Origin: a virus
Virus record (IMG/VR): IMGVR_UViG_3300044858_001379
Location: 1-35,956 of that record
DNA length: 35,956 nucleotides
Direction: 5' to 3' (one strand)
The notes beneath the pieces are model-generated. The model was not told the DNA's origin, did not search any database, and saw nothing but the letters and a program-made list of their open reading frames with translations. Positions 6,951 to 35,830 of the stretch are shown piece by piece. Numbering within the stretch: the stretch's first letter is position 1; every line of letters begins with the position of its first letter. The position numbers were made by a program, and so were the translations under genes.

Positions 6951-6971
6951 ATTATTTTGGGTGATTTTCTA
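6951..6971. repeat. Direct repeat copy 1 flanking glycosyltransferase
   Basis: A 21-base sequence here matches 7684-7704 at 20 of 21 positions in the same orientation. It covers the last codons and stop of the glycosyltransferase. The other copy covers the same codons (L-E-N-H-P-K-stop) of the membrane-protein gene upstream in transcription. Confidence 0.85.
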
Positions 6972-8895: not shown

Positions 8896-10307
8896 TATCG
8901 TTTCATTCTAGTTGATGCTGCTGTGAGGGTTGCCCCCGCTGCGATAGCGATGAGGGTTTGGCGTTCGGATACAGGAATCTTGCTGTCTATTGGGACATAG
9001 GTGCCGAGTCCTTCAGAGAAGATGTCTACGGAATCTTCAAACGCTTCTTTGACTTCGGTTGGTGCATCGGTGACGGCTTCGGCTAGGGCTTCTAGTTGGG
9101 TGTTATCTAATTCGGTTACGTCTAATGCTTCAAAGACTTGGGTGGCTTGGTCGGATGTGAGTACGGCTAGGGCGGCTGGGCTGGATGCGATGGCTGTGGC
9201 TTGTTCTTGGGTTGGTTCTTCTTCCAAGATGGCTTCGATGAGTTGTTCAGCCTGTTCGGAGGTGAGTTCTTCTAGGGCTTCTGTGAGGGCTTCTACGGTT
9301 TCTATGGTGTCTAGGATGGTTTCTAGTTCTTCGACGCTTAGAGGGGCTTCTGGTGCGTCTGGGAGGGTGTCTGGGGGTGCAGGCTCAGTGTCAGGTGGGG
9401 CAGGTTCGGTGTCCTCAACTGGGGGTACGGTATCGGGTGGCAGGTCGGTAGTCTCTGGTGCTTCAGGTTCCGTATCAGGAGGGTCTAATGGGAGTGTTTC
9501 TTCAACTGGTTCTGTCTCTGGTGGACTGGGTTCCGTATCTGGTGGCGCTGGCTCTGTTGTGGGCGGTTGCTCAACCGTTGCAGGTGGCTGCGCTGGCGGT
9601 GGTGATACGGGTTCTGTGGTGGTTGTGGTTTCAACAACCGTCGAGGTGGTCGTAGTTGTTGTCGTTGTTGTTGACTGTTCTGGCATGGTCGGCTCTGGTG
9701 CTAACGATGTGCTGGTCGGTACGGAAGAAGTAGTAGTTGACTCCACTGTTGTAGTCACAGCCACAGTTGTTGTGGACACATCCGTTGTAGTAGTGGATTC
9801 CTGAACAGTTGTTGTGGACACTTCGGTGGTGGTTGTTGTTGCGGTGAACTCCCACAACGACAGGTTGCTGATAGTCAGATGCCCTGGTGAGCAACAGGTA
9901 TCTGTCGAGTATTGGCGGAACGTGAAAATGTCACCTTCGTTTACGGGTACAGACTTGGTTCCAGTCGCATTGTTCTGCTGAGTGATAAGCGTGTAGATGC
10001 CATTGATGCCGTACTGCGGCGGGTCATACACCCAACCATCAGTTGTCTGATACGACCAAGTGAAATCAACCGTGTTTACATCGGCGGGGATTGTGGTTTC
10101 AATCTTCACCCAATGCGCTGCACCTGAACATCCGTTCTGGTCGGGGCCGTGCAAGGTGATGGTGTTGTCTACAACTTCGACTGAGCCACCGCAGGCTGCT
10201 GACTGGCTGTATTCCCAGTCTCCTAAAACGTCGGCTTTAACAGGCTTCGCATAGATTGCGAATAGTGCTACGGGTATGAATATCAGCCAACGGGTATTGC
10301 GACCCAT
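8895..10307 (-). CDS. Secreted mucin-like protein with Thr- and Pro-rich repeats
   Basis: The 470-aa protein begins with a signal peptide (MGRNTRWLIFIPVALFAIYA, likely cut after V-K-A), then a beta-sandwich-like domain of about 130 residues with paired Cys. A long Thr/Ser-rich stretch (about 155-230, runs of Thr) and a Pro-rich stretch with repeats of P-P-D-T-E-P (about 235-325) follow. A helical acidic domain with S-V-E-E-L and T-S-E-Q-A repeats comes next, and a C-terminal weakly hydrophobic segment ends in R-M-K-R. It looks like an extended cell-surface or virion-surface protein, perhaps anchored at both ends. Location between tail and lysis genes could mean adhesin, superinfection barrier or lysis helper. 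Function unknown. Confidence 0.8.
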   Translation of the reverse strand: MGRNTRWLIFIPVALFAIYAKPVKADVLGDWEYSQSAACGGSVEVVDNTITLHGPDQNGCSGAAHWVKIETTIPADVNTVDFTWSYQTTDGWVYDPPQYGINGIYTLITQQNNATGTKSVPVNEGDIFTFRQYSTDTCCSPGHLTISNLSLWEFTATTTTTEVSTTTVQESTTTTDVSTTTVAVTTTVESTTTSSVPTSTSLAPEPTMPEQSTTTTTTTTTSTVVETTTTTEPVSPPPAQPPATVEQPPTTEPAPPDTEPSPPETEPVEETLPLDPPDTEPEAPETTDLPPDTVPPVEDTEPAPPDTEPAPPDTLPDAPEAPLSVEELETILDTIETVEALTEALEELTSEQAEQLIEAILEEEPTQEQATAIASSPAALAVLTSDQATQVFEALDVTELDNTQLEALAEAVTDAPTEVKEAFEDSVDIFSEGLGTYVPIDSKIPVSERQTLIAIAAGATLTAASTRMKR

Positions 10308-10648
10308 GCCAATGTTTCTTCATCCCACATGTAGTCACCTTCAGGTTTTGCTGTTGGTGCTTGCCAATCATTGTTAGCATCCAATGTCCATGATGCGTAT
10401 GGCTGTGGTGCTACAAACTGGTCTGCGTCAGCATCATAGGTGTAGCCAATACCTGCGTATTGTTTGCGAAAGTTGCTGTTAAATGATGTCTGTTTCCACA
10501 AGCCATCAAACTTCAAAGTGTTCGCTATAAACGCACGACCCGCCGCTTCAGTATCAGGAAAATCCAATGTCGGTTCACCGCACACTTCGTTACTAATACT
10601 AATAACTTGTGTAACAATGTTGTTTTCTAGTTTTGCAAAGTAAGCCAT
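10283..10648 (-). CDS. Conserved aquatic-phage protein, MAYFAKL type
   Basis: The ATG at 10648, overlapping the Gly-rich gene's stop as TAATG, starts M-A-Y-F-A-K-L-E-N-N, followed by V-T-Q-V-I-S, L-W-K-Q-T-S-F-N-S-N-F-R-K-Q-Y-A-G-I-G-Y-T-Y-D, P-Q-P-Y-A-S-W-T-L and W-D-E-E-T-L-A-W-V. This pattern is familiar from cyanophages and other marine phages, where it is a small protein near tail-fibre genes of unknown role. It suggests exchange with aquatic phages of other hosts. Function is probably structural or assembly related, by context only. It overlaps the next gene by 25 bases. Confidence 0.85.
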   Translation of the reverse strand: MAYFAKLENNIVTQVISISNEVCGEPTLDFPDTEAAGRAFIANTLKFDGLWKQTSFNSNFRKQYAGIGYTYDADADQFVAPQPYASWTLDANNDWQAPTAKPEGDYMWDEETLAWVAIPVG

Positions 10649-11592
10649 TATGAACCCCACTTAACTGTGCCGCTGTCATTGAAGGTATAATAAGCATAAG
10701 TTGCGTCAATACTTAGCGTTCCTCCTGTTACAGCCCCAATCAAAAGACTATCGCTGAGTGCCTGCCTGATAATAACTACACCTTTACCACCAGCGCCGCC
10801 AGTAGGGGTTGCGTTTTCACCACCACCACCACCACCACCACCAGTGTTTGCCGTACCACTTGTAGCACCACCAGCAGCACCACCTGCACCACCGCCACCT
10901 GCACCACCTGCACCAGCAGCACCAAATGGCGCATATGCACCAGAACCACCACCACCACCACGAGTAACAGAACTTCCAGTAATGCTGTTTGCTACACCTG
11001 CACCGCCAGCAACACCACCTCCAGCAGTTGAGTTCGCTCCAGCAGCACCAGCACCGCCACCGCTACCGCCCGAAAAACCTTCGCCTGCATTAGTACCGTT
11101 ACCACCTGCATAGCCTTCGTTTGCCGTTCCTGCTCCACCAGCGCCACCTGCACCTGGTGTGTTGCCACCACCGCCACCACCCGAACCGCCTAAGTTTCCA
11201 GCACCACTAAATAAGGCTGCACCACCGCCACCACCAACCGTACTAACCGTTAAACCTGTTCCAATAATTGAAGAAGAAGTACCATTTGTGGCAGCAGCGC
11301 CACCATTAATACCACCAGAACCACCACCACCTACAGTAATTGTGTAAGTAGTTCCAATTGTTACCGCTACTTTTGATTCCGCACTAGCACCACCACCAGA
11401 TGTTGCACCTGTTACCGAAGTTCTATAACCACCAGCACCGCCACCACCACCTCGTGAGTTACCACCACCGCCTCCGCCAGCAATAACAAGATATTCAAGC
11501 GCAGCAGGAGGAAGAACACCAACAGCAGCAGGTTTGCCCCAAGTAGCAACGCTAGGGTCAGATGCTGTTCTCGCAGGAAATCGTGCAGCCAT
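10648..11592 (-). CDS. Glycine-rich tail appendage protein
   Basis: The 314-aa protein has a short N-terminal segment, then L-E-Y-L-V-I-A-G-G-G-G-G-G leading into about 220 residues made mostly of Gly, Ala, Ser and Thr with many G-runs, ending in G-G-K-G-V-V-I-I-R and a small C-terminal domain (...Y-Y-T-F-N-D-S-G-T-V-K-W). This is the layout of Gly-rich phage tail proteins that can fold as polyglycine-II sandwiches and bind host receptors at the tail tip. It sits at the distal end of the tail gene block. The receptor is unknown. Confidence 0.82.
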   Translation of the reverse strand: MAARFPARTASDPSVATWGKPAAVGVLPPAALEYLVIAGGGGGGNSRGGGGGAGGYRTSVTGATSGGGASAESKVAVTIGTTYTITVGGGGSGGINGGAAATNGTSSSIIGTGLTVSTVGGGGGAALFSGAGNLGGSGGGGGGNTPGAGGAGGAGTANEGYAGGNGTNAGEGFSGGSGGGAGAAGANSTAGGGVAGGAGVANSITGSSVTRGGGGGSGAYAPFGAAGAGGAGGGGAGGAAGGATSGTANTGGGGGGGGENATPTGGAGGKGVVIIRQALSDSLLIGAVTGGTLSIDATYAYYTFNDSGTVKWGS

Positions 11593-15678: not shown

Positions 15679-15832
15679 GTTTCATTCTCTTTGCGGCAGC
15701 GTTATCAACAAGGTTTGGATATGGGCGACCTGCCTTTTTCGCACGAGCCTTGGCAGCAGTCTTTTGTGCTGGTGTTAATGGGGTGGATTTTTTGTTTGGG
15801 TTTTTTTTGTCCCAAAATTCTTTCTTTTTCAC
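15671..15832 (-). CDS. Small basic protein (53 aa), GTG start
   Basis: The GTG at 15830-15832 overlaps the preceding TGA (GTGA) and has AGGAG 8 bases upstream, so the 53-aa product V-K-K-K-E-F-W-D-K-K-N-P is the likely gene; the in-frame ATG at 15982 lies far inside the glycosyltransferase. It continues L-T-P-A-Q-K...A-K-K-A-G-R-P-Y-P-N-L-V-D-N-A-A-A, a pattern familiar from small basic phage proteins adjacent to DUF6321-like genes. Three basic small genes in a row point to a shared DNA- or RNA-binding role in the virion. Confidence 0.72.
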   Translation of the reverse strand: MKKKEFWDKKNPNKKSTPLTPAQKTAAKARAKKAGRPYPNLVDNAAAKRMKRG

Positions 15833-16953
15833 AGCAAAACTCCTGATTCCTTTAACACGTTCCTGACATTCAACACTACAGTATACGTTTCCCCTGGAAC
15901 CATGCTCACATAATGACTGCCAATGGTGGCTTGGACACGGCGTGACACTTGTATTTCGCAGGTGGGTTCCAAGGGTTTCCAATCTGGGGTAATAAGTTTC
16001 GGGGATGGTTTGACGATTTGTAGGAGTTGGTCGGCTGACGTGTTCCAGTTGAACGCTTCTGTTTGGGGTGCTTTCAAATATGCTTGCTTACGGTATTTGT
16101 CACGGTTCAGGTAGATGTCTTTGATGGCTTCGGCTAATGCTTCCTGGTCGGGTTCGTCCCAGTCGCCCATGTTCTGCCAAACACCTTTGGCGGTGGGCAC
16201 TGATGTGGTGGGGATTCTGTGAGTGGCAAGATTCGAGAACTCTCTGTGACCGTGGGCATCAGAGATGATGGTTGGTACACCAGCAGAGATTGCTTGAAGT
16301 GGCATCAGCCCGAACCCTTCACCTCTGGATACGGATATGAAACAGTCTGCCGAGCGAACCAGGTCGCGTTCCTGTTCGACGGTTAACCATTCACGGTGCA
16401 CGATGACGTTGGGGAACTCTAGGTCTTTGGGTGCGAACAGATGTGGTGGAACTATTTTGATGTGGAGTTCGGTGTCTGGTAGTTGAAGTTTGTTGAATAC
16501 TTCTAGTACTACGTCGAGTCCTTTGCGGTACCATTCGGAGCCGCCGCACAAAATTTTGAACTTGTTGTTTGCTGGTCGGTCTGCTGGATGCCACATGGTT
16601 CGGTCTACGCCGAGGGGTATCATGTGCACTTCGTCGTGGAATTGTGAGAATAGTTCCCAGTTGTGCAGCGATGGGACTATGATTTTGTTGAAGTTTTGTA
16701 GGTAGTCTGAGAATTCTGGTGGCAACCAGTTTGTTTCCCACATGGTTAGCAGGTGTGGTACTTGTGTTTTGTGCCAGCCTTTTATCAGGTTTGGTCTTAA
16801 AGCGAAAACAACATGTTCTGCATCTTCGACAAGTGTTACCTTTTCTGATAACGCATTGCGTAGTCCGACAACCATTTTGCCGTAACCAACTTTTTCGATG
16901 TTGACACCAACAAGGTTTAGATAGTTGGAAGTATTCCTGTTTCCACTTGCCAT
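15829..16953 (-). CDS. GT4-type glycosyltransferase with C-terminal beta domain
   Basis: The 374-aa protein has a GT-B fold: N-terminal Rossmann half with V-G-Y-G-K-M and W-E-T-N-W-L, K-I-I-V-P-S, I-P-L-G-V-D at about 110-115, then K-I-L-C-G-G-S-E-W-Y-R-K-G-L-D and the donor-binding S-R-G-E-G-F-G-L-M-P-L-Q-A-I-S-A-G-V-P. It lacks membrane segments. The last 45 residues (C-E-I-Q-V-S-R-R...) form an extra beta segment not part of the catalytic core. It sits among virion genes, so it may glycosylate virion or host-surface molecules. It overlaps the upstream gene by 37 bases. Confidence 0.85.
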   Translation of the reverse strand: MASGNRNTSNYLNLVGVNIEKVGYGKMVVGLRNALSEKVTLVEDAEHVVFALRPNLIKGWHKTQVPHLLTMWETNWLPPEFSDYLQNFNKIIVPSLHNWELFSQFHDEVHMIPLGVDRTMWHPADRPANNKFKILCGGSEWYRKGLDVVLEVFNKLQLPDTELHIKIVPPHLFAPKDLEFPNVIVHREWLTVEQERDLVRSADCFISVSRGEGFGLMPLQAISAGVPTIISDAHGHREFSNLATHRIPTTSVPTAKGVWQNMGDWDEPDQEALAEAIKDIYLNRDKYRKQAYLKAPQTEAFNWNTSADQLLQIVKPSPKLITPDWKPLEPTCEIQVSRRVQATIGSHYVSMVPGETYTVVLNVRNVLKESGVLL

Positions 16954-17192
16954 CCTTCTTGTGCTCTTTTCTCTACGTTGGCAGCACCGTCAATCCTCTT
17001 TGGTTGTAATCCGTTTGCGCGAAGACGTTTGTATGCTGGCATATCTTTATTCCAGTTGCGTTCTGTTGTGTTGACTGCGGCTACCTTAGCCCCACGGGTG
17101 GTGGTGGTGTTGGTTCCCATTCTTACCCCTGCGACTCTGCATCCGAAACATCCTTCAACGTCTAAGTTGGGGTGTGTTTCTTGGTGTTTCAT
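16917..17192 (-). CDS. Small conserved actinophage-type protein (91 aa)
   Basis: The protein starts M-K-H-Q-E-T-H-P-N-L-D-V-E-G-C-F-G-C-R-V-A-G-V and later has R-N-W-N-K-D-M-P-A-Y-K-R-L-R-A-N-G-L-Q-P-K-R-I-D-G-A-A. I associate this paired motif (HPNLDVEGCFGC and QPKRIDG) with small hypothetical proteins near head genes of actinophages. The CxxC may bind metal. It overlaps the previous gene's stop by 4 bases. Function unknown. Confidence 0.72.
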   Translation of the reverse strand: MKHQETHPNLDVEGCFGCRVAGVRMGTNTTTTRGAKVAAVNTTERNWNKDMPAYKRLRANGLQPKRIDGAANVEKRAQEGWQVETGILPTI

Positions 17193-17485
17193 GTTATAAA
17201 TGCTCCGTATCCTGCGGCGGTTAGCGATGCTACTTCGGTTGCGTCGACTTCAATTTCGTGTCCACCGTAGTACACCTTGCTCACCGCGACAGCGTATGAC
17301 GGTTGGTTTTCTGTGTAAGAACCATCAGACAACAAATAGATATTGCGTCCACGCGGCGAAGGTTCAATGCGCCCACCCAAACGATTAGCAAGACGCTGGT
17401 CCTTAGACAAACGCATACCACCCATGTAATCGGAAACAATCACAGGCACAACAAAGTCGTCGGTTGGTGGTCGAAACGTAGCCAT
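17189..17485 (-). CDS. Small structural protein with GGH-AAG domain
   Basis: The 98-aa protein ends with I-Y-L-L-S-D-G-S-Y, then K-V-Y-Y-G-G-H and D-A-T-E-V-A-S-L-T-A-A-G-Y-G-A-F-I-T. The same domain closes the 321-aa protein encoded next door (YKLTDGTY, KVYLGGH, DATEIAELTAAGFG), so the two are paralogues with and without a repeat region. It is probably a virion or fibre-associated domain. The start overlaps the neighbour's stop by one base. Confidence 0.75.
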   Translation of the reverse strand: MATFRPPTDDFVVPVIVSDYMGGMRLSKDQRLANRLGGRIEPSPRGRNIYLLSDGSYTENQPSYAVAVSKVYYGGHEIEVDATEVASLTAAGYGAFIT

Positions 17486-18450
17486 CAGGTAATACTACTT
17501 CCGAACCCAGCAGCGGTCAGTTCAGCAATTTCGGTGGCATCCAAGAAGTTATCGTGCCCACCCAAATACACCTTGACAATACGCTCAGGGCGACGTGGGT
17601 CAGTTATCTGATATGTGCCATCAGTAAGTTTGTACAAGTTGTATGCCCTAATCCCTTGCGGTGTGAATGAGAACAGTCTGTCGGATGGTTCGGTAGAAAG
17701 CCGTTCAGCGAACGGATAGCCTGTAGTTGTTGGGACACGGAAGATGTGGGATTTATCCCAATCGGCGGTGCCTGTGCCTAATCCTGAACCTGTGCCCGTT
17801 CTGAATAATGCCCGTGCACCAATCGTCGTCGATGTTCCCTCGCCTGCACCCGACGATGTACGGATAGCCGTGACAACCCTCGTCGCCTCAGACGTTCCTT
17901 CACCTGCACCTGTGCTAGTTCTGACAACAACATGGATTGATATTGTAGTGGCTGAACCAACACCATTACCTGTGGCACTTCGCACAGGAAGAATTTTTCC
18001 AACTGTTGTATCTGAACCTAGTCCACTTCCAGATGCCGTGCGTGGAGCAATGTGAAGTCCTGTGGAATCCATTGTTCCCACACCCGAACCTGTAGCGTTA
18101 CGAATCCGTACAGATATTGCCACCGCAGTAGCATCACCAAGACCACTGCCCGATGCTTGGCGTTGGCGTAGCACTTGTGCGACAGATGACGCTGTACCCA
18201 AACCTGATGCTGTAGCAGTAACCGTGAGAACTGCACGAACACCTAGATAGTAACGACCGCCGAAACGGTACGGGAAACTGAAGTCAGTTAACTGACCTAA
18301 ACGAACCTGAGCAGAACCATGCGCGACAGAGGATGTTCCGTTACCCGAACCAGTAGCAGTACGACCAACAACCCGAAAATAGGTTGCACGATAAAACGGG
18401 TGCGTATCATAAAACGGTTCTGTGAAACCTGTGACTGCTGTTTGCGCCAT
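17485..18450 (-). CDS. Structural protein with 20-residue tandem repeats
   Basis: The 321-aa protein has an N-terminal region rich in Tyr/Phe (1-70), at least seven tandem repeats of exactly 20 residues with core A-[ST]-G-[SNA]-G-x-G-[TSD] and an R near each end (about 79-226), then a C-terminal domain shared with the 98-aa neighbour. The repeats probably form an elongated beta structure, such as a fibre shaft. It lies between capsid and tail genes. A virion surface or fibre role is inferred. No repeat is frameshifted. Confidence 0.78.
   Translation of the reverse strand: MAQTAVTGFTEPFYDTHPFYRATYFRVVGRTATGSGNGTSSVAHGSAQVRLGQLTDFSFPYRFGGRYYLGVRAVLTVTATASGLGTASSVAQVLRQRQASGSGLGDATAVAISVRIRNATGSGVGTMDSTGLHIAPRTASGSGLGSDTTVGKILPVRSATGNGVGSATTISIHVVVRTSTGAGEGTSEATRVVTAIRTSSGAGEGTSTTIGARALFRTGTGSGLGTGTADWDKSHIFRVPTTTGYPFAERLSTEPSDRLFSFTPQGIRAYNLYKLTDGTYQITDPRRPERIVKVYLGGHDNFLDATEIAELTAAGFGSSIT
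17773..18216 (-). repeat. Tandem 60-base coding repeats (20-aa units)
   Basis: The repeat units start with Ala/Ser-Thr/Ser-Gly-x-Gly-x-Gly at residues spaced exactly 20 apart in the encoded protein. At the DNA level the units differ considerably, so the array is old or kept diverse; the copy number can change by recombination without breaking the frame. Confidence 0.75.
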
Positions 18451-23201: not shown

Positions 23202-26200
23202 CTACATTCCTATTTCTACTGGGTCAAATTCGCGTGAAAGAACATTCTCCCACAAACCAAGAAATTCAGGATACTTTACCGCTAGAGCAGCGCCATTGGT
23301 GGTCAAGTCGGCACGCATATCAAGAGATGCTTTGACCGTTTTCCAACTCTCGTTAGCCAAAGCAGGGTTGTCTTTGATGGCTTGAGCAATATAGGAAGTG
23401 CGGTAATCCCAATACTTTTTGAGAGCCTCACCCGCAGGCAGTTTGGTAATTTTAGGGTCAAGCACCATTTCGGACAGTTGACGCAACTGGTTTTTCGCAT
23501 CCATTTCCCTGGCATTAGCCTTGCTATCCCACATAGGGAACTGTTGTTTAAGACCTTCTGATGTCATTTTCATTTCCGACGTATAGGTTTCAGACCTCAT
23601 GGTTTGCTGTGGGGTCAAGCCCTGCTCCCTGCCACGAGCCAACAAACTGTCTTTTGCGTTGTTGTATACGGTCCAAGCAAGACCATTCAAAGCATCATCT
23701 TGGCGTTTCTTCAGTTCTTTAGGGGTACGCTTGCCGACAGCACGCTGTTCACCGTAGGCTTTAGGGTCGTACTCGCCTTCTTGTGGTCCGAGGTAGCCAG
23801 CCACCAGCGGATACTTGTCAAGAAGGTCAGAGTTCTTTCTGTTCCATTCAGCGAACTCTTTGGTTGCTTGCATGCCTGGCAGGGATTTGGTTGAACCTGC
23901 CAAATAAATCCAAGCGTCGTTACCGTATTTGGTCAAAAACTCTAGGACACCATCAGCATATGTTCCGCCCGCTTCCATGCGTTTGTCGGTGATGGCTCGC
24001 AGGTCATCCATGACCGCACCAGAGGTGACGTTTTCTGAACCGAGGTCGGTGTAGTACTTGGTCATTGATGCACCTGGCAACATGATTTTGAAGAAAGACT
24101 TCAGTGCCAGCGCAACGTCTGCTTTGGTTTGGGTATTATCAAGAAGCGTATTACGTTCATCGATTGTCAAAGGCGTATTGCTGCTGTTCGATGCGATGTT
24201 GGTAAGCACAGCATTCAACGTTGTTGCCCGAATACTGTCATTTTGTTCTGTGGCGAACATCGCCTGAAGGTTGGTTATTAGGTCGAACTCTGTTCCGCCA
24301 CGTGCCAACGATGCACCCGAAGCAATCAAACCCTGACCCCATGCAGGGACAAGATAGTCAGCCAAATTAGACCGAACCGCTGGGTCGCCAAACGGAAACA
24401 CAAGATTCCTCGTTGCAGCAAATGCCTCGTTCTTTGGCAAAACAGAGTCCATAACCATCGCACCAAGACCAAAGAATCCTGGGACAGCAGAGCCAAGCAG
24501 CGTCAAGTTCTTTGTTGATATTTGTTCTTGGGCGTTTAAGCCAAGCATCCTGTACACCTCACGAGAAAACGGCAAAGCAACCGCCTGCTGATTGGTGTCT
24601 TCGTCTGTGTAGATAATTCCTCTGCCTGGTTCTCCACCAGCCCAAGATGGAAGTTCAGCGCCCGTTAATCCCTCTTTGGCTAAGCGTGCCTTTTCAAGCA
24701 ACGTTGGCTGTGTCGCCATTTGACGCATCCATACCGACCATTGTTCACGCCACGCATCGAAGAACCCAAACAACAGGGAGTGCCGTGCACCGAAATAGGA
24801 TTTCTTTGCGGAGTCATATAGCACATCTGACATGAACTTGTCACCGTACATTGTTCCAAGAATTTCCACTTGTTTGCGTGTCGCAGTTCCTTGCGCTAAT
24901 GACAGTTGTGATTCAATGGAATCTTTCAAAAATTTGGGTGCATCACTGGCATCGATAGCCTCAAACATTTTTTGTGCTTCTGCTGGGTCCATAGCAGGAA
25001 TAAGTTCTTGAATACGCTTCCATTTCATGTACTGTTCAAGCGGACCGCGAGCATATTTTGCTGACACATCACGATAAAGACTAAAGTTTTTGGTAAGAAA
25101 ATTAGATTTCATCGCTTGTTGAGCCTGCATTTCAACGCGATTAAACGGCGCCGCTTTTGCTGACTCTGGATTGGTCAAAAGATTCTGTTTAACCCACAGT
25201 TTGAACTCTTCCGTAGCCTCATAGATGTGACGTGAAGTAGATGTCCTATCAGCCCAACTAAGTTTTGCCGCGATTCTTTGACCATCTAGTTCGCCAGTAG
25301 CAATTGTTTCAATAAGTTTCGGGTCGTTTGCAACTCTGGTTGTGATGTCCGAATAGATTGTTGCCACCCACTGGGTGTTGCCATCTATCTGTGTTAACGG
25401 GAACATGGTGCTCATAGCATCAGCGCCTTGTGCTTTAAGAACTTTTTTGTAGTAACGGTCAAATAATGGTTTAAGGTCGCCGTTGAGGAATCGTTCTGGT
25501 AGTTGGTCGATTGCGGCTTTGCCACCAGCCAACAATGTTTTTGCTACTTCACGATAAATCGGGTCTTCGGACATGGAAACAATATCGCGTGATGTCCCAG
25601 TAACCCAGTTTTTGTTCTGCTTGCTATTTGGGTTGATGACCATACCGTTAATATCAACGTCTTTAAACGCTGCTTCGGTAATGTTCGAACGTTCGTAACG
25701 TGCTATCCGTGGGTCAAGACGGTCCCTAGCCATCAAACCTTCAGCCAGTTCGGTAAGTTTTCTTCCAGTTCCAGGGAGTGATTCTGTAGCCCTGTTTTCG
25801 AATACGGCAATTTGTTTAAGAATATCTTGCCTTGTGCCGTAACTTGCTTCAATAGCGTCAATAAGTTGCTGTGTTTGGGAAACTGTGTTTGTTTCACCGA
25901 TGGCAGCGCGACTCATTTCGTTTTTTAGTTTTGAATACAAAGTATCAAGATGGTCGGCAATTGGAATAAGTTTGTGGGCTTCTTTGCTGGAAATGAGTAG
26001 GTCGCCAGCGGTGTTGTAGTTGACATATCCGTATGCTCCCCATACTTTGAATGTGTCCATACCAAAAGATTGTGTGGCAGCGATACGCAGCATTTCGTCT
26101 GGGAGGATTCTTGTTACCATTCGTATTGGCAGTGGTGCTCCAAGGGCAATCGGTTTTAAATAACCAGTTTGGATTCTTTGAAGTTTTTCTATCAGTGTTG

Positions 26201-28682
26201 GTTGCAACAACTTTTCTATTTTCGGGTCGCCACGAAAAGGTTTAAAAACTTTCCACAAGTTTGTTGTTTCGCGGATAACTTGTTGCAGGTTTTCTGGGGA
26301 AACCATCATAAAACCTTTTGCCATAAAATCATTTAGTCGAATGACTTCACCAGTACCATCATCGAACCACGGTGTTGGGTATGCCTGACCGATGGCGTCC
26401 ATTGACCACTGTTCTACGCCGTCGTTCCATCCAGACCATTTAGCAACGTCATCAATCCATTCTTCTGGAACACCATTTTTTCTTAATACTGGGGCGATAA
26501 CCGTTTTCTGAAACTTGTCTGCCAATTCAAAACGTCGTGATGTTTCCCCGTTGACAGACGCTTTGATGAGGTCGGAAAGCATTTCATACTTTTCTTTCTT
26601 GGGGACCTTCATAATGGTCATCAAACGATTAGCGTCGTTCACTGAAGCCATCGGGTCTTCGAAAGAAAAGAATGTGCTTTGTGGCATGGTCGCAAATTGG
26701 CGTGTTCTGCCAGATGACCATTGTGCTATTTGTGTTCCTGTTTGCTGAATGATTGGTTTAAGAACACCTGGAACTTCAAATACGCTGTATAGCGGGTCGC
26801 CACTATATACTGCTTCACGCAATACTTTGTGTACCTCTTTCAGGTCAACGGCTTTCCCTGCTGCCTTTGCAACGTCAACAATTTCTTGAATTTTTGCTGC
26901 GGCACCAATCGGAACGTTGCCAAGGAACGCATCGTATAGTTGCCCAACGTTGTCAAATGATGAAAGTTTTTCTAATGCTCTGCGACCATCAGCGTAGAAC
27001 GGCATGTAGTCAATGTTCTTTGGGTTGATGCGCATTGTTCCATCAGCCTGGTCGATGATGCCCATGTTTTCCCTGATTGCCACTCTGCTACCTGCTGGGG
27101 AAAGGTATTTGGGGGAAGGTGGCATGTCGAGTGCTTTGAGGGTTTGACCTCCAATCGATTGCTGTGCAAGTTCTTCTGCTGCCATCTGCACATCGCGAGG
27201 AAGCATTGTTCCCCTTGGAAGAATATCTACACCTGGGGAGATGTTAACGATGTCGCCAACATCGTCGGAAAGTCCTGCTGCTCGACGTTCTGCCGCCCAT
27301 GCTTCTCTAACAATTTCTGCTGCCTTACCTTCAAGTACGCCAAGTGCTGCAACCCTGGAAAGTTTGTAGGTGTCCATGAGCAACCTGAGTGGGTCGCCAA
27401 AAAGCGATGGGTCAGTTGCCGCAGTGAAAGTTCCATCGACAATTCCAGAAAGCATGTTTGCCGCGTAGCCATTGCGGTCTATGTAGCCTTCTTTGATAAA
27501 AGGTTCTGCTACTGCCCGTCCAACAGTGAAGGTCTTTCCACCGACCTGTGGGAGACCAGCATCGTGAGCACGAATTGCTTCTTCCATTGCTTTGCCTTCT
27601 GGGAAGAATCCGCTACCAATATCAATTTTTTCTCCCGCGAAAGCCTGCATAGCAATTTGGCTTAATATGTTTCCCTTGATAACTATGTTGTTGTAGTCGT
27701 CCCATGTTTCTTCATCCATGATTGGGAGACTTTGTACACCAAGAGATGACAGTGCACCTGGGTGTGTCATTGCAAATTCGAGAGTTCCTTTTGTGTATTG
27801 TGCGGCAGCAGCAAGACCAGTTGTGACTGCCCGCGTCACAGCCTTTCCTGGTTTACTTAACTGACCAACAGTGCCAGCAATATCAACTGGACCAATCGAG
27901 TCGGGGACAGCATAGGAAACAATTTTTGGGACCACACCCAATGCGGCGACAGTCCCCGATAATTGGGATTTAAATGTTTCTGTTAACGAGCCAGCCATCG
28001 AGTCCAAACTCCATGCGTTTGGTCGTGCCGAAGAAGAAATTTCTGCGTCAAAGATTTCTTTTAATTTAGGAAACTTTGCTCCCAGGTCCTCATACGGGAA
28101 AAAGGAACCAGGTATTCTTTTGCCTTCCATATCAACATATTGTTGAGAAACGTTTTTGGTTGTAAGTTCTTGCCACTCTTCTGGCGTTTTAGACAAATAC
28201 AGTTTGACAATTTGGGGTTGCGTTAAAGATAAAAGGTCTGTTGCTTTTTCTACGGTTTCTGGTACAGGGATTCTGCGTACGTATCCACCTGGGTCTACCT
28301 CGTCCCACCAGTCTGGAATGTTTTCGTGGCGGGTAGCCATTTCTCGTTGGTCGATTTGCAACAAGTCATACAAGGTAAAATTGGGTTTTGCTTTTGGTGT
28401 TGGGGTTGCGCCTTTTACAAGGTCGTAACGATTGTTTAATTCCAGGTGGGCAAGTTGTGCTTGTTTGGCAGCGTTCCTGTGGACCAGACTCATGTCAATT
28501 TTTGTTTCTGACAATCCCAGTGCGGCTGTCACTTCTGGGTTGGTGTAATAGCCGCCGTTGGCTGCTTTGCCTAAACGGTCTGCTGTGTCTGCCGTGAACT
28601 GCTGTGGGTATTGTTCGCGTTTTGCGCGGAGTGCTACCGCTTCGTTGTGTTCGGCTTCAAGTTGTTGCTGAGTTTTTCTCAT
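23202..28682 (-). CDS. Giant internal virion (ejection) protein, 1826 aa
   Basis: One uninterrupted frame of 1826 residues, the largest gene here (15% of the window). It is mostly helical with scattered amphipathic stretches (for example about 225-310, including G-T-V-A-A-L-G-V-V-P-K-I) and a hydrophobic stretch near the C-terminus (L-L-G-S-A-V-P-G-F-F-G-L-G-A-M). I see no catalytic motif, no Walker box and no T7-like RNA polymerase signatures. Its size and position after portal resemble large ejection proteins (T7 gp16 type) or giant virion proteins co-injected with DNA. A tape measure is less likely because no long-tail genes (tail tube, chaperones) are present. Confidence 0.7.
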   Translation of the reverse strand: MRKTQQQLEAEHNEAVALRAKREQYPQQFTADTADRLGKAANGGYYTNPEVTAALGLSETKIDMSLVHRNAAKQAQLAHLELNNRYDLVKGATPTPKAKPNFTLYDLLQIDQREMATRHENIPDWWDEVDPGGYVRRIPVPETVEKATDLLSLTQPQIVKLYLSKTPEEWQELTTKNVSQQYVDMEGKRIPGSFFPYEDLGAKFPKLKEIFDAEISSSARPNAWSLDSMAGSLTETFKSQLSGTVAALGVVPKIVSYAVPDSIGPVDIAGTVGQLSKPGKAVTRAVTTGLAAAAQYTKGTLEFAMTHPGALSSLGVQSLPIMDEETWDDYNNIVIKGNILSQIAMQAFAGEKIDIGSGFFPEGKAMEEAIRAHDAGLPQVGGKTFTVGRAVAEPFIKEGYIDRNGYAANMLSGIVDGTFTAATDPSLFGDPLRLLMDTYKLSRVAALGVLEGKAAEIVREAWAAERRAAGLSDDVGDIVNISPGVDILPRGTMLPRDVQMAAEELAQQSIGGQTLKALDMPPSPKYLSPAGSRVAIRENMGIIDQADGTMRINPKNIDYMPFYADGRRALEKLSSFDNVGQLYDAFLGNVPIGAAAKIQEIVDVAKAAGKAVDLKEVHKVLREAVYSGDPLYSVFEVPGVLKPIIQQTGTQIAQWSSGRTRQFATMPQSTFFSFEDPMASVNDANRLMTIMKVPKKEKYEMLSDLIKASVNGETSRRFELADKFQKTVIAPVLRKNGVPEEWIDDVAKWSGWNDGVEQWSMDAIGQAYPTPWFDDGTGEVIRLNDFMAKGFMMVSPENLQQVIRETTNLWKVFKPFRGDPKIEKLLQPTLIEKLQRIQTGYLKPIALGAPLPIRMVTRILPDEMLRIAATQSFGMDTFKVWGAYGYVNYNTAGDLLISSKEAHKLIPIADHLDTLYSKLKNEMSRAAIGETNTVSQTQQLIDAIEASYGTRQDILKQIAVFENRATESLPGTGRKLTELAEGLMARDRLDPRIARYERSNITEAAFKDVDINGMVINPNSKQNKNWVTGTSRDIVSMSEDPIYREVAKTLLAGGKAAIDQLPERFLNGDLKPLFDRYYKKVLKAQGADAMSTMFPLTQIDGNTQWVATIYSDITTRVANDPKLIETIATGELDGQRIAAKLSWADRTSTSRHIYEATEEFKLWVKQNLLTNPESAKAAPFNRVEMQAQQAMKSNFLTKNFSLYRDVSAKYARGPLEQYMKWKRIQELIPAMDPAEAQKMFEAIDASDAPKFLKDSIESQLSLAQGTATRKQVEILGTMYGDKFMSDVLYDSAKKSYFGARHSLLFGFFDAWREQWSVWMRQMATQPTLLEKARLAKEGLTGAELPSWAGGEPGRGIIYTDEDTNQQAVALPFSREVYRMLGLNAQEQISTKNLTLLGSAVPGFFGLGAMVMDSVLPKNEAFAATRNLVFPFGDPAVRSNLADYLVPAWGQGLIASGASLARGGTEFDLITNLQAMFATEQNDSIRATTLNAVLTNIASNSSNTPLTIDERNTLLDNTQTKADVALALKSFFKIMLPGASMTKYYTDLGSENVTSGAVMDDLRAITDKRMEAGGTYADGVLEFLTKYGNDAWIYLAGSTKSLPGMQATKEFAEWNRKNSDLLDKYPLVAGYLGPQEGEYDPKAYGEQRAVGKRTPKELKKRQDDALNGLAWTVYNNAKDSLLARGREQGLTPQQTMRSETYTSEMKMTSEGLKQQFPMWDSKANAREMDAKNQLRQLSEMVLDPKITKLPAGEALKKYWDYRTSYIAQAIKDNPALANESWKTVKASLDMRADLTTNGAALAVKYPEFLGLWENVLSREFDPVEIGM

Positions 28683-30944: not shown

Positions 30945-32924
30945 CTACGTTAGCATCCATGTGGGTCGCCATTGTCTTGGTGGGAGTTTTATTCCGCCGA
31001 CTGTTGGGAAGTGTAGTTCCGCAAACCAGTTTGCCATTACGAGGTCGGTACCGTTTTTTTTGTCGGGGGTCCATTTGGTGAGTTCGTCTACGAGTGCGAG
31101 TGTTTTCCAGTTGCCGCGCATTGATGGGAGTCGGACTGCGCCTGAACGGTAGAGGGGTGGGAGTAGTGCTTCGATGCCGAGTTTTTCGTCGAATTTGTTT
31201 CGGTGTGTGGTGTGGGGGATGATGTTGACCATTTGTCGTGATTGCCATTTGCGTACGAAGTCGTGGGCGAGGAGGAAGCGTTGGGCTGCGTTGACTTCAA
31301 CAACGATGTGTGATACAGGGTAGCCGTAGGAGAAAGCCCTATTCGTCCAATCTTCTAGTAACCCAGAGTATTCGCCACTGGTTGTGTCATATCCGAGTAG
31401 TTCTTCGGCTGTGAGTTTCACTCGTTCGACATCTATCAAATATCTGAGGTTTGTTGACGGCTGATAGAGCCACCATTGGATTCCCCAGAACTGGGATGGG
31501 GATGGGTCAACCGAAATGATGGAAATGACGGGTGGTGCGAGTCCTTCAGGGATTTGTCCTGGCAAACGGTCGTTATCGATGCAACCTTGGTACAGTACCC
31601 CGTCGTCTCCTAGCCCACCTGTTATCCATGTTCGTGAGATTAGGTTTATGTCTGACGCATCATCTTCTTGTTGATATACAACCTTAAAAGTTCTTGGGTT
31701 CGAATACCGAATGTACGACAAATCTTTCCAAGAGAGACGCTGAGGGTCAAGCAACGGACCTTTAGGGTACGGTTTGGAGTCGAATCGTCTGCTTTTTGGA
31801 CCATCATCTAGTTCAGGATAATACGCTTTGTACACAATGTGTTTGTATTTAGAGGATTTGACGGGTTCCATAGCGTTCACTGCTTCTGGTGTGGTCATGT
31901 CCATGCCGTCGTAGTCTTCATCGTCAAGGTCATAGGTGATTTTGTTGAGGCAATGGGCGTAAAGGTCGCCTGAACCCAGTCTTTGCCCCACTACTGCAAG
32001 TAATCCTGATGGGTCTACACGGGCTTCGGCTACTTGGTCCCAGCGTTCCAACAGTTTGTCGCGAGTATTGCCTTCACGAGCATTATCTACGGACGCTACG
32101 TCGTCGAATAGGCACAGGTCGGCGCGGTGTCCAATGTATTCTGAGTCAATACCATAGGCGCGTACCGTTGGTTCTTTGTTGTCTAGCCCGTTTCCGTCTA
32201 GTTGTTCCACTACGAACTCTTCTGCACGCCACAAAGCACCTTTGTCGGATGGTTTGAACCTGCCGTAGTCCACAGACAGGCATCCCTCAGCATCAACTGC
32301 TAACCCTTTGCGAACTATTTCTGGGTCTGGCTGGATTGGTTGCTGCCGTTCCAGGGTTTCTCGGATTCGGCGACTGTATTGTTTTGCCATTGCCTGTGAA
32401 ATGGAGCCAATCATTACACGGATGGCACGGTTGCGTACGATTGCCCATACTGCAACATCGTGGAACAGGGTGGATTTGCCTGCTCCTGGTGGGACGTTTA
32501 GGACAACGAATTCTTTTTCGGGGTGTTCCAACATTTCTACAAGTTTGAGGGCTGCCTCTACTTGCCACGGGGAAGGTACCCGTCCTAGATAGTGTTTGCG
32601 GAAGAAGTCGAAATCGTCTAAGCCGCGTTGAGCATTTTCGCAGAGACGATGATGGGGGATGGCTGGGAGAAGATTGTTGGCTTCGTCTAGGTCTTGTTCG
32701 TATGCTCGGTGTTGTGCGCCGCCTTCACGTGATTTGGTTTTAGTAACAGCGAGTACGGCTGCGTCTAGTTTGGCTTTGGCTGCTTTGGATTGGGCTAACC
32801 AGCGTGACCCTGTGTTGATGTGTACGCCTGAGATGCGGGATGCTTCGGTGATTGAGGAGCCTGCTGCTATGGCTGCGAAGAATCGTTGTTTGTCTTCTGG
32901 TGCTACTTTTCGTTTGGTTCCCAT
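30945..32924 (-). CDS. Terminase large subunit with N-terminal HTH domain
   Basis: The 659-aa protein has an ATPase domain with W-Q-V-E (120-123, adenine-binding Gln), Walker A V-P-P-G-A-G-K-S (144-151), Walker B L-C-L-F-D-D (270-275) and a C-terminal nuclease domain with S-V-D-P-S and E-V-N-A. It packages phage DNA into the procapsid through the portal. Residues 10-55 form a helix-turn-helix (A-G-S-S-I-T-E-A-S-R-I-S-G-V-H-I-N-T-G-S-R-W-L) of the kind normally found in the separate small terminase. No separate small terminase gene was found. AAGG precedes the start. Confidence 0.93.
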   Translation of the reverse strand: MGTKRKVAPEDKQRFFAAIAAGSSITEASRISGVHINTGSRWLAQSKAAKAKLDAAVLAVTKTKSREGGAQHRAYEQDLDEANNLLPAIPHHRLCENAQRGLDDFDFFRKHYLGRVPSPWQVEAALKLVEMLEHPEKEFVVLNVPPGAGKSTLFHDVAVWAIVRNRAIRVMIGSISQAMAKQYSRRIRETLERQQPIQPDPEIVRKGLAVDAEGCLSVDYGRFKPSDKGALWRAEEFVVEQLDGNGLDNKEPTVRAYGIDSEYIGHRADLCLFDDVASVDNAREGNTRDKLLERWDQVAEARVDPSGLLAVVGQRLGSGDLYAHCLNKITYDLDDEDYDGMDMTTPEAVNAMEPVKSSKYKHIVYKAYYPELDDGPKSRRFDSKPYPKGPLLDPQRLSWKDLSYIRYSNPRTFKVVYQQEDDASDINLISRTWITGGLGDDGVLYQGCIDNDRLPGQIPEGLAPPVISIISVDPSPSQFWGIQWWLYQPSTNLRYLIDVERVKLTAEELLGYDTTSGEYSGLLEDWTNRAFSYGYPVSHIVVEVNAAQRFLLAHDFVRKWQSRQMVNIIPHTTHRNKFDEKLGIEALLPPLYRSGAVRLPSMRGNWKTLALVDELTKWTPDKKNGTDLVMANWFAELHFPTVGGIKLPPRQWRPTWMLT

Positions 32925-32936
32925 GCAGGGACAACC

Positions 32937-33824
32937 TTATACGACTGAAGGGTTGTTTTTGTTGTACTTCTTAGATGCTCGTTCTCTCAACAATCTTTCA
33001 ATAGCCTTTTCTCTGGTTGAGTCACGCAAAGGTGCACCCGCAAGTTTAAGTTCTTTTGCCAATTGGTTTTTGAAATCGCCGCCAGCAACAGGAACCTTTG
33101 CAACAATTCTTGCTGGGCTTTTAGAAAGAACCCAAGGAGGATTTTTAGGGTCAAGAGGGTTCCCTTTTGCCGCCATCTGGTTAACTAAACCAGCATTGCT
33201 TTCTTGATACTCCAAGTTTTTCAAACTCTTTTTAGGAAACTTCGCGATGATTGCCCCACCTTTTGGACCTGTGTACTGCTTGACGCTTCCTTCGAGATAG
33301 TCGGCGCTGCCGCTTCCTTTAAATTGTGGGTTGTATCCGAACACAACTTTTTCGGTTGGGGAGCCAGGGCTTCCTGCTTTTGGCATCAACTTGTTTCCAA
33401 TCAACTTTTCAAAATCTGGTGTTCCATGAACAAGAACTTTTTGACCTGTGACCTTGTTGCTGATTCGGGCTGGTAGACCAGTGCCAACCACGGCACCAAC
33501 GCCTCTTTGTAGGGCTTTCCCTGTGCCGTAACTGATAACTTCGGATGCTATTTGTAGTCCAGCAATTTTTGCTTGCTGTGTTACTGCTGCTTTGTAACCT
33601 TTGTTTTGGTAGGTTGCTGCACCTTTTGCTGCGGTTTGGGCGGCTATACCTAACGGTGTTGATTTGACTACGTTGAGCAGGTTGTTTGCTGCACGTTGCG
33701 GGGTGTTGAGTACAACTTTTTTAAAATCTGCAAGGTTGGAACCAGATGTGTCAGCCATCGCTTTTTGTGCGACGGGTTTACGTGCTTGGTTCTCTTTTGC
33801 TTTAGGGTCTTTCCTTGATGCCAT
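32937..33824 (-). CDS. LAD[FY]K-cassette protein 3, possible ART-like domain
   Basis: The 295-aa protein has a basic N-terminus ending D-T-S-G-S-N-L-A-D-F-K, a motif shared with the next two genes. A Gly/Ala-rich helical middle follows (about 60-120). Then comes a domain with V-L-V-H-G-T-P-D (about 128-135), K-V-V-F-G-Y-N-P, S-A-D-Y, then G-G-A-I-I-A-K-F, and a basic tail. The H-G-[TS]-P...VF.Y.P...S.DY...G...V/I.K order is shared with the 292-aa protein, and recalls ADP-ribosyltransferase-like folds (His-Gly-Thr at the NAD site). The activity is unproven. It sits just before terminase. Confidence 0.65.
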   Translation of the reverse strand: MASRKDPKAKENQARKPVAQKAMADTSGSNLADFKKVVLNTPQRAANNLLNVVKSTPLGIAAQTAAKGAATYQNKGYKAAVTQQAKIAGLQIASEVISYGTGKALQRGVGAVVGTGLPARISNKVTGQKVLVHGTPDFEKLIGNKLMPKAGSPGSPTEKVVFGYNPQFKGSGSADYLEGSVKQYTGPKGGAIIAKFPKKSLKNLEYQESNAGLVNQMAAKGNPLDPKNPPWVLSKSPARIVAKVPVAGGDFKNQLAKELKLAGAPLRDSTREKAIERLLRERASKKYNKNNPSVV

Positions 33825-33826
33825 GA

Positions 33827-34504
33827 TTATTTGTTCCTCAATGAATACAACGGTCCAAGAAGTGCTGCACCTTTAAGAACTCTTTTGCCTGTTTTAATAT
33901 CTTTAAGCATGTTCATGCCGCCTGCTGTCGCGCCGCGTGCTGCTGCGGTGGAGATTCGTGCTGCGTTGGCTTCTAGCCCTGTGAGGCGTGCAGCGGTTTG
34001 TGCTGGAGAAGCAAGTTGAGTTGAAGCCAAAGTTTTGCCGAACACAGTGTTTGAAATGTAGGTTCTGCCACCTTCACGAATTGACCCTAATCCTTTGGTT
34101 GCTGAAGTCCATGCGGCGTTCCCTGCGCCTTCAATGGCTGGTGCTACGTAACGTCCTAACAGTTTTGATGTTACTTTTCCTGTGGCAATAACGGGTATTG
34201 ACCCTGCTTTGGCTGGCAATGAGATACCGATGAGGGCTGCGTTAATTACGTTTCCTTTAGAAAGATTCGAACCAGCCAACGAGGTACCTAATGGCGTTGA
34301 ACTTCCAGCGAACATACCTTTGTCTGCGCCTTTAGGTGTTGTTCCAACATAACTTGGTCCTGAACCTTTAGCAACATACGTTTTTCCTGGGGAACCAATA
34401 GTTGCGGATGACACTGCGGCTGGTTTGTATTTTGCTTTGAAATCTGCAAGCGACATACCGCTAGTGTCTGATGTTGCTGCTGTCGATTTTTTCTTCGATG
34501 CCAT
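33827..34504 (-). CDS. LAD[FY]K-cassette protein 2 (no HG motif)
   Basis: The 225-aa protein starts M-A-S-K-K-K-S-T-A-A-T-S-D-T-S-G-M-S-L-A-D-F-K, the same N-terminal module as its neighbours, but then is low-complexity, rich in Gly, Ala, Ser and Thr, with a hydrophobic segment (I-N-A-A-L-I-G-I-S-L-P-A-K-A) and a basic end. It lacks the H-G-[TS]-P motif. It may be a scaffold or chaperone-like partner of the other two, or a membrane-interacting virion protein. Function unknown. Confidence 0.6.
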   Translation of the reverse strand: MASKKKSTAATSDTSGMSLADFKAKYKPAAVSSATIGSPGKTYVAKGSGPSYVGTTPKGADKGMFAGSSTPLGTSLAGSNLSKGNVINAALIGISLPAKAGSIPVIATGKVTSKLLGRYVAPAIEGAGNAAWTSATKGLGSIREGGRTYISNTVFGKTLASTQLASPAQTAARLTGLEANAARISTAAARGATAGGMNMLKDIKTGKRVLKGAALLGPLYSLRNK

Positions 34505-34513
34505 CAGTTAACC

Positions 34514-35392
34514 TTACTTGTTTCTGCGGGCTTTGATTGGACTGAAAGTAAATTTCTTGTCTGACTGTATTGCTTGTTGGATTTGCTTGGAAAGGGGTGA
34601 AAAGTTTTGTGTTGTTTCCCATGCCCCCTCCATGCTGTCAAAAGTCTTTTTCGTATAGTTACCCATAGGGAACTCTTTAACTACTTTCATTGCCTTGCTG
34701 GACATTTGTTCCATGCTTAACCCTGTTGCCATAAAGGCATCAGAACCAGAAACAGCCTTACTGGTATCAACAGTGTTTGGAAGAATGTTTTTTGCTTTGG
34801 TTTTCACCACATAGAGTGAGCCTGTTCCGCTACCAGCGCGCTGCGCGTAATCTGTAGATGACAAAATGGTGGCTGGGTCTGGCTTGTAACTGAACACTTT
34901 TGGTGATGTTACTGATTGGTCCTTGCCAAGCATCTTTGAAATGTTTGTATTGTAACTTTGTGTGTTTCGTCCTGTTTGCGGAACAATTTTTGACAACCCA
35001 GTTGTTGGGCTTCCGTGCACTCCGTAATACATTTTTTGAGAGTTTGAAACAGTTTGTATTCCCTTGCCAATGGCTTTTCCTGCGCCGTATCCTGCGCCAG
35101 CAGCCAACAAGTTGATTCCAGCCTGTTTCGCTAAAGCACCTCGACCTTTCGCGCCAGCGCTTATCATGCCACCTGCAAGTGATTGGTCTAACTGTTTTGC
35201 GCCTTCACGAATAACGGCTTTAGTGGTTGTAACTTGTGACAGTTCACCAGGTTTTGTTGATTGCCATGGTGCTGTAAGGTTTTTGATTCCACCAACAATG
35301 TCTTCTGCGATACCTTTAGGTTTTGCTACAGATGCTTTATAATCTGCAAGCGAACCAGTGAAGTTTGGTTTAGCAGGTTTCTTTGATGGCAT
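34514..35392 (-). CDS. LAD[FY]K-cassette protein 1, possible ART-like domain
   Basis: The 292-aa protein starts M-P-S-K-K-P-A-K-P-N-F-T-G-S-L-A-D-Y-K, then a Gly/Ala-rich segment (about 75-110), then Y-Y-G-V-H-G-S-P-T-T-G-L-S-K-I-V-P, K-V-F-S-Y-K-P, S-T-D-Y-A-Q-R-A-G and S-L-Y-V-V-K-T-K-A-K-N. The last part matches the 295-aa protein in order and spacing. ADP-ribosyltransferase-like folds often have H-G-T near the start and S-T-x or Y-A near the second strand, but catalytic residues cannot be fixed by eye. No Shine-Dalgarno precedes the ATG; a promoter just upstream suggests a leaderless start. Confidence 0.65.
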   Translation of the reverse strand: MPSKKPAKPNFTGSLADYKASVAKPKGIAEDIVGGIKNLTAPWQSTKPGELSQVTTTKAVIREGAKQLDQSLAGGMISAGAKGRGALAKQAGINLLAAGAGYGAGKAIGKGIQTVSNSQKMYYGVHGSPTTGLSKIVPQTGRNTQSYNTNISKMLGKDQSVTSPKVFSYKPDPATILSSTDYAQRAGSGTGSLYVVKTKAKNILPNTVDTSKAVSGSDAFMATGLSMEQMSSKAMKVVKEFPMGNYTKKTFDSMEGAWETTQNFSPLSKQIQQAIQSDKKFTFSPIKARRNK

Positions 35393-35393
35393 G

Positions 35394-35423
35394 TTGTAAG
35401 AGTAACATAATGTCTGCTATCAT
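35394..35423 (+). promoter_or_regulatory. Candidate promoter of the plus-strand RNA
   Basis: TTGTAA (35394-35399) and TATCAT (35418-35423) are 18 bases apart on the plus strand. The -10 matches TATAAT at 5 of 6 positions. Transcription would start near 35430, about ten bases before the first hairpin of the structured non-coding region. It overlaps the opposing late promoter, so the two may compete. Confidence 0.4.
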
Positions 35424-35431
35424 CTAACCAA
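35404..35431 (-). promoter_or_regulatory. Candidate promoter of the late operon
   Basis: On the minus strand TTGGTT (complement of 35426-35431) and TATGTT (complement of 35404-35409) are 16 bases apart. The -10 hexamer ends 11 bases before the ATG at 35392, so transcription would begin about 4-5 bases before the start codon, giving a leaderless message as is common in actinobacteria. The -35 match is weak (3 of 6). Confidence 0.35.
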
Positions 35432-35440
35432 CTTCATCAA

Positions 35441-35830
35441 GACCCTCATGTCGGGAAGACACAGGGCACCCAAGGTCGTACACCTGTTGCATGGTGCGGG
35501 ACGTAAACAGGGGAACCTGGGTAGGTATCTATTCTTTGAAATAGGTAAGCAGCGTGATGAACGTCATCTCATCAAATTAAAGGTGTCGGCTTGAATTAGC
35601 CACGGCAGCCTTCTGCGGGTGCGGGAAATGTGGGGGAGGGCATCTTACTGTTTTAGGTTTTGTTGTTGTTTAGTTTTAATGATGCTGGCGCGGCGCAAGC
35701 GCCTTGCCCACAGTTAACTTGACACCCCAGTCTGAACATCTGTTCCTCTGCGGCGAAACACAAATGATGCTCTCAAAACGAGAGGCGTCAAAAACTGTCA
35801 TACAAACCTCTGCCACCCTGCCAAGGGCAT
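35441..35830 (+). ncRNA. Candidate structured non-coding RNA
   Basis: No gene is visible here. Back-to-back stems are: CCCT/AGGG with TGTC/GACA (35443-35466); an 8-pair stem with one bulge, 35468-35476 with 35515-35522, enclosing CCTGTT/AACAGG (35483-35511); TATCTATT with AATAGGTA (35526-35547); GATGA/TCATC (35556-35568); GGCT/AGCC (35588-35601); GCAG/CTGC (35605-35616). A U-rich loop (35646-35680) lies between GCATC and GATGC, and a bulged 9-pair hairpin is at 35766-35789. In TATCTATT/AATAGGTA one pair is T-G, a valid U-G only if the plus strand is transcribed. Short stems can occur by chance; the ordered long stems are less likely to. The ends are uncertain. Confidence 0.42.

What the first reader, a model, noticed from the sequence alone, without database searches (positions are those of the whole stretch)
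32937..35392. Three adjacent genes share a basic N-terminus and a LAD[FY]K motif
All three products open with a short Lys/Arg-rich stretch then (D-T/F-T)-[S/T]-G-x-[SN]-L-A-D-[FY]-K. The DNA also shares AATCTGCAAG (plus strand) at 33725, 34441 and 35341. After the motif the proteins differ: two have a H-G-[TS]-P domain, one a low-complexity region. A shared N-terminal tag on variable bodies, placed first in the late operon just before terminase, suggests a targeting signal, perhaps for loading into the virion or for injection. I know of no described system with this tag.
Basis: partly seen in the sequence, partly recalled or inferred. Interest (0 to 1): 0.78.

Follow-up and report, generated by a model that had tools for sequence, protein, structure and literature searches.

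The report
Shared tag on swappable phage proteins
A group of aquatic viruses that infect actinobacteria carries, just before the DNA-packaging gene, one to four small basic proteins that share the same ten-residue start but have interchangeable bodies (several predicted ADP-ribosylating enzymes, a likely cell-wall peptidase and others), which looks like an address label for cargo loaded into the virus particle and delivered into the host.

Summary
Three adjacent minus-strand genes just upstream of terminase begin with a basic stretch followed by [SN]LAD[FY]K; chance predicts 0.0035 copies in the window. The tag is not confined to these genes. Related IMG/VR contigs gave 79 distinct tagged proteins, in a 1-4 gene island directly before terminase. 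In 39 islands read completely, 55 of 67 genes carry it.

Bodies are exchanged both ways: same N-terminus with a different C-terminus, and the reverse. At least six body types are not linked by any sequence search here. The tag is kept at the protein level: all six leucine codons occur, and identity falls to background just past it.

Two window proteins end in a domain predicted to have the ADP-ribosyltransferase fold. Other tagged bodies include an M15-like peptidase and a domain shared with a 'head protein' of Salmonella phage SPN1S. All 79 are strongly basic (median pI 10.2); nine other packaging and structural proteins of this phage are not (pI 4.8-6.3).

Best reading: a loading tag on virion-packaged, injected effectors, working like T4's capsid-targeting sequence. 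Packaging itself is inferred, not shown.

The parts
34514..35392 (-). 292-aa tagged protein, first gene of the late operon; C-terminal domain of predicted ART fold (HGSP type)
35336..35365 (-). Tag NFTGSLADYK (residues 10-19 of the 292-aa protein)
34517..35041 (-). C-terminal domain (residues 118-292) with predicted ADP-ribosyltransferase fold; H126, Y194 and E240 invariant in its nearest nine-member family
33827..34504 (-). 225-aa tagged protein with Gly/Ala-rich body of unknown fold
   Evidence: structure prediction failed, pLDDT 32
34436..34468 (-). Tag DTSGMSLADFK (residues 13-23 of the 225-aa protein)
32937..33824 (-). 295-aa tagged protein, last before TerL; C-terminal HGTP domain related to that of the 292-aa protein
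33720..33752 (-). Tag DTSGSNLADFK (residues 25-35 of the 295-aa protein)
32940..33467 (-). HGTP domain (residues 120-295); keeps the histidine, lacks the tyrosine and glutamate of the other type, so activity is doubtful
35393..35467 (-). Leader before the first tagged gene, shared with relatives; ends TTATGTTACTCTTACAAC directly before the ATG
30945..32924 (-). Terminase large subunit, the anchor of the island
   Evidence: phrog_38 E 4e-63

Best explanation
The three genes are part of a cargo island of an actinophage clade. A short N-terminal tag (a basic stretch, then about ten residues ending in [SN]LAD[FY]K, probably the start of a short amphipathic helix) marks otherwise unrelated, strongly basic proteins for loading into the prohead during assembly, perhaps by binding the scaffold, portal or another head protein. 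The loaded proteins lie with the DNA and enter the host with it, where the C-terminal bodies act: domains of ART fold on host molecules, an M15-like peptidase on the cell wall, Gly/Ala-rich bodies perhaps at the membrane. Shown here: the tag, its spread over unrelated bodies at one locus, its conservation as protein, body swapping, uniform basic charge, predicted ART fold. Inferred: binding partner, packaging, injection, enzyme activity.
For: 79 distinct tagged proteins, all in genes directly upstream of TerL; 55 of 67 genes in 39 complete islands. Body swaps in both directions. L, D and K invariant over representatives of 19 body clusters while flanks fall to background, and codons agree only 43% of the time where the residue agrees. 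Predicted ART fold and related second domain; ARTs encoded near terminase and portal are proposed to be head-packaged in many phages (PMC9503650). One tagged body matches a 'head protein' of phage SPN1S beside two annotated internal virion proteins; another resembles an M15 peptidase and a tape-measure PHROG. Tagged proteins all basic, other packaging and structural proteins of the phage acidic or near neutral.
Against: No virion proteomics. Some island genes lack the tag, including an HGSP protein, L065, and most more distant relatives have untagged basic proteins at the same place, so the tag cannot be the only route. No clear prohead protease was found, unlike T4. The SPN1S match is weak (E 0.01), as are the VanY matches (E 0.03-0.08).
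Confidence: 0.55

Rival explanations
1. The tagged proteins are late-made effectors that act in the infected cell, or on grazers that eat it, and are not packaged; the tag docks them to a host or phage partner.
For: ART toxins of the VIP2 type have been reported in freshwater phages, some predicted to infect actinobacteria, and proposed to hit eukaryotic grazers (PMC6802176). The genes are first in the late operon.
Against: No VIP2 or other ART family profile matches. An M15-like peptidase and a body shared with a 'head protein' fit entry better. Uniform positive charge is not needed for this role.
Confidence: 0.13
2. The tag is a structural docking element: the proteins are scaffold helpers, minor head proteins or terminase partners, and the bodies matter little.
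For: Position directly before TerL and the portal; basic proteins could help condense DNA.
Against: The bodies are diverse, swap between phages, and include enzyme-like folds with conserved residues in one family. TerL itself carries a weak terminase-small-subunit-like N-terminus, so a missing small subunit need not be sought here.
Confidence: 0.15
3. The shared N-terminus is mere common descent: duplicated genes whose 5' ends serve as recombination sites for new bodies, with no function of the tag itself.
For: Some neighbours share long N-terminal stretches (L005:606 and L005:1392); swaps need some shared sequence.
Against: The flanks have diverged to background while L, D and K stay fixed, and synonymous codons vary. 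Tag distance from the start codon varies from 5 to 29 residues.
Confidence: 0.1

Closest known systems
Phage T4 capsid-targeting sequence (CTS) on Alt and the internal proteins
   Same: Short N-terminal sequence shared by several different proteins, one of them an ADP-ribosyltransferase; 10-20 residues; T4's version is enough to package foreign proteins (PMC5694885)
   Different: Different phage type and size. T4's CTS is removed by a prohead protease, and no clear protease was found here. Many exchangeable bodies here; packaging not shown. I did not compare the sequences.
MuF polymorphic toxins of phages
   Same: Constant N-terminal part with exchangeable effector bodies, ARTs among them, encoded by head genes (PMC5512222, PMC9503650)
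   Different: MuF is a folded head domain; here the constant part is a short motif of about ten residues, and no Pfam or PHROG family matches
Rhs toxins TreX/TreTu and rifampin ADP-ribosyltransferase Arr
   Same: Best solved-structure matches of the C-terminal domain: TreX Z 7.3, rmsd 5.0 over 120 residues; Arr Foldseek E 0.01
   Different: About 10-16% identity; no Arr-ms profile match in the window. A shared fold does not show the same substrate.
Polyvalent virion proteins (large injected multidomain proteins)
   Same: Proposed delivery of ART and other effector domains with phage DNA (PMC5512222)
   Different: Here the effectors are separate small proteins carrying a common tag rather than one large polypeptide

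Membership tests
ADP-ribosyltransferase superfamily (292-aa protein, C-domain) | ART fold | tested here: met
   Predicted model only (pLDDT 71, pTM 0.67). Rows of the VIA-align list are ART-type proteins such as TreX, pertussis S1, Tpt1, PARP15 and Arr, Z up to 7.3; Foldseek top hits E 0.0025 and 0.01. Z under 8, so the fold is likely, not certain.
ADP-ribosyltransferase superfamily (292-aa protein, C-domain) | Conserved catalytic-type residues (His or Arg, Tyr or Ser, acidic residue) | tested here: inconclusive
   H126, Y194 and E240 are invariant in the nine nearest relatives, but their geometry in the model could not be checked.
ADP-ribosyltransferase superfamily (292-aa protein, C-domain) | Match to a known ART sequence profile | tested here: not met
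   No ART family in Pfam, PHROGs or NCBIfam; no Arr-ms match. A new branch would also miss these profiles.
ADP-ribosyltransferase superfamily (292-aa protein, C-domain) | NAD-dependent activity | not testable with these tools
   Needs purified protein
ADP-ribosyltransferase superfamily (295-aa protein, C-domain) | Conserved catalytic-type residues | tested here: not met
   Homologous domain (hhalign probability 95.4) and the His is kept, but the aligned Tyr is Ile and the aligned Glu is Lys; activity is doubtful.
T4-type capsid-targeting sequence | Short N-terminal sequence shared by proteins with different bodies | tested here: met
T4-type capsid-targeting sequence | Directs the protein into the prohead | not testable with these tools
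   Needs virion proteomics or a packaging assay
T4-type capsid-targeting sequence | Removed by a phage prohead protease | tested here: inconclusive
   No convincing protease among ten structural-region proteins; only a weak phrog_530 match, E 0.028
MuF polymorphic toxins | N-terminal MuF domain | tested here: not met
   No Pfam or PHROG match in the tagged proteins scanned
MuF polymorphic toxins | Constant N-terminus with exchangeable C-terminal bodies | tested here: met
   met as architecture only
VIP2-type ADP-ribosyltransferase toxins of freshwater phages | Match to the VIP2/ADP-ribosyltransferase exoenzyme profile | tested here: not met
   Pfam scan at E 1 gave no ART family

The most novel reading that the evidence does not exclude
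A general encapsulation peptide, independent of T4's, by which a clade of small aquatic actinophages loads a changing set of exchangeable effectors into its head, so that entry and host-takeover functions evolve by putting the tag on new domains.
Probability: 0.35. Interest if true: 0.82.

Novelty: new variant of a known kind. Interest (0 to 1): 0.62.

Why it matters
If right, the tag would predict virion cargo and injected effectors straight from sequence in a poorly annotated group of aquatic phages, and the peptide could be tested as a way to load proteins into small phage heads. It also adds a compact route, a short tag instead of a fused head domain, to the known ways in which phages deliver effectors at infection. 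The question becomes directly testable by virion proteomics.

Tried and rejected
DNA-level reading of AATCTGCAAG: rejected, it is one codon version of L-A-D. Translation or leader signal: rejected, because the tag's distance from the start varies and internal genes carry it. Links between the HG[ST]P domain and the HHS or HFS bodies: none found by profile comparison, so their folds stay open. Sequence search of the HG[ST]P profile against the PDB: only chance hits to designed proteins. Structure of the 225-aa protein: failed, pLDDT 32. TerL or ART-domain relatives in bacterial genomes: none found, so no host link beyond WhiB. INPHARED: no match to the 292- or 295-aa protein. KU886271, a published freshwater actinophage, is not held.

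Full report
What is there. The window is one 35,956-base virus record with a WhiB gene at 1288-1503 (61.6 bits), which points to an actinobacterial host. The late genes run on the minus strand. The operon begins with the three genes of the finding (34514-35392, 33827-34504, 32937-33824), followed by TerL, portal and further structural genes. The shared N-terminal motif is real and far beyond chance (3 copies against 0.0035 expected).

Spread. With TerL as anchor I collected 78 IMG/VR loci. A search for [SN]L[ASD][DSG][FYW]K near an N-terminus gave 79 distinct proteins, in one to four genes immediately upstream of TerL. In 39 loci where the island could be read from its leader to TerL, 55 of 67 genes carry the tag and 35 islands have at least one. 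My rule for untagged island genes demanded a net positive charge, so that share is conditional. A second TerL clade at about 69% identity also has tagged genes. In most more distant relatives the same place holds proteins with a lysine-rich start but no LAD[FY]K, and some share parts with tagged proteins (the HGS domain of L067; L079 against L052:7143). The tag is thus a clade feature; that it was added to an older habit of basic proteins at this locus is inference.

Bodies. Clustering gives 19 groups, several joined by partial matches that mark swaps. L001:291 and L011:641 agree over about the first 100 residues and then diverge. L011:1520 and the 295-aa window protein agree over the last 175 residues and differ before. 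L046:1770 shares its N-terminal part with L044:521 and its C-terminal part with L037:1187. Body types include the HG[ST]P domain, the HHS body, the HFS body, an M15-like peptidase (SxHxxGxAxD and EPWHF seen in the sequence; weak VanY-type hits at E 0.03-0.08 and a tape-measure PHROG at 1.7e-4), a 132-aa type whose body matches a Rhizobium phage protein (39%, E 1e-7) and the SPN1S 'head protein' beside two 'internal virion proteins' (E 0.01), Gly/Ala-rich bodies (one with a sub-threshold glycine-zipper hit), and a 113-aa type.

The HG[ST]P domain. The C-terminal 175 residues of the 292-aa protein were modelled with 22 sequences (pLDDT 71, pTM 0.67). Foldseek's best solved structures are the Rhs toxin TreX (E 0.0025) and rifampin ADP-ribosyltransferase (0.01). 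In the VIA-align second look the rows listed are ART-type proteins, Z up to 7.3. A Z below 8 alone can be a common arrangement; the uniformity of the list and the conserved H, Y and E argue for the ART fold. The nearest predicted viral structure is a 288-aa protein at 67% identity without a name. Profile comparison joins the 295-aa protein's domain to it (probability 95.4, E 1.8e-8), but that protein lacks the Y and E and may be inactive.

Selection on the tag. Across representatives of 19 body clusters L, D and K are invariant, and identity drops to 0.05-0.29 past the tag (L and K were required by the search pattern, D was not). Where L, A or D agree between two proteins the codon agrees only 43% of the time, and all six leucine codons occur. 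The [SN]L.. core starts 5 to 29 residues after the start. [SN]-L-A-D resembles a helix capping box, and W/Y, L and F/Y would lie on one helical face; this is my reading, only weakly echoed by the failed model of the 225-aa protein, where the tag is the least uncertain part and is drawn as a short helix.

Charge. All 79 tagged proteins are basic (pI at least 9.2, median 10.2, median charge +20.6), while TerL, portal, capsid and six neighbouring proteins have pI 4.8-6.3. This suits proteins packed with DNA.

Mechanism. I favour loading into the prohead by the tag and delivery with the DNA. T4's CTS shows that a short N-terminal sequence can do this (PMC5694885), and ARTs encoded near terminase and portal are proposed to be head-packaged in many phages (PMC9503650). 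Nothing here shows packaging directly, and the tag cannot be the only route because some island genes lack it. Paper searches found no description of this tag, within the limits of an open-access library.

Noticed in passing
35393-35467 and the first island gene of relatives (L001, L014, L037, L051 and others): The first island gene is preceded by a shared leader ending in sequences such as TGCTATTCTTGCAAC directly before the ATG; it looks like an extended -10 box about six bases from the start codon, which would give a leaderless late mRNA. Similar endings occur before untagged island genes of more distant relatives.
   Followed up: partly
30945-32924: The N-terminal part of TerL (about residues 4-74) weakly matches terminase small subunit families (phrog_4102 E 0.001) and HTH families, as if a small-subunit-like domain were fused to TerL.
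   Followed up: no
17189-17485 and 17485-18450: Two adjacent proteins share a C-terminal module: VYYGGHEIEVDATEVASLTAAGYGAFIT and VYLGGHDNFLDATEIAELTAAGFGSSIT.
   Followed up: no
15829-16953 and 6952-7680: Two glycosyltransferases, the first matching the GT4-conflict family, lie among tail and lysis genes.
   Followed up: no
23202-28682: An 1826-aa protein between portal and capsid genes with only one weak PHROG match of unknown function; a candidate large ejected protein.
   Followed up: no
L041:1109-1849: Tagged M15-like peptidase; the same body was found in only one further contig, also tagged locus L064/L296. The window has a separate VanY-type peptidase at 7908-8471.
   Followed up: partly
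8895-10307 and 10648-11592: A Thr/Pro-rich repetitive protein (TTTTTVVETTTT, PPDTEP repeats) and a Gly-rich protein in the tail region.
   Followed up: no
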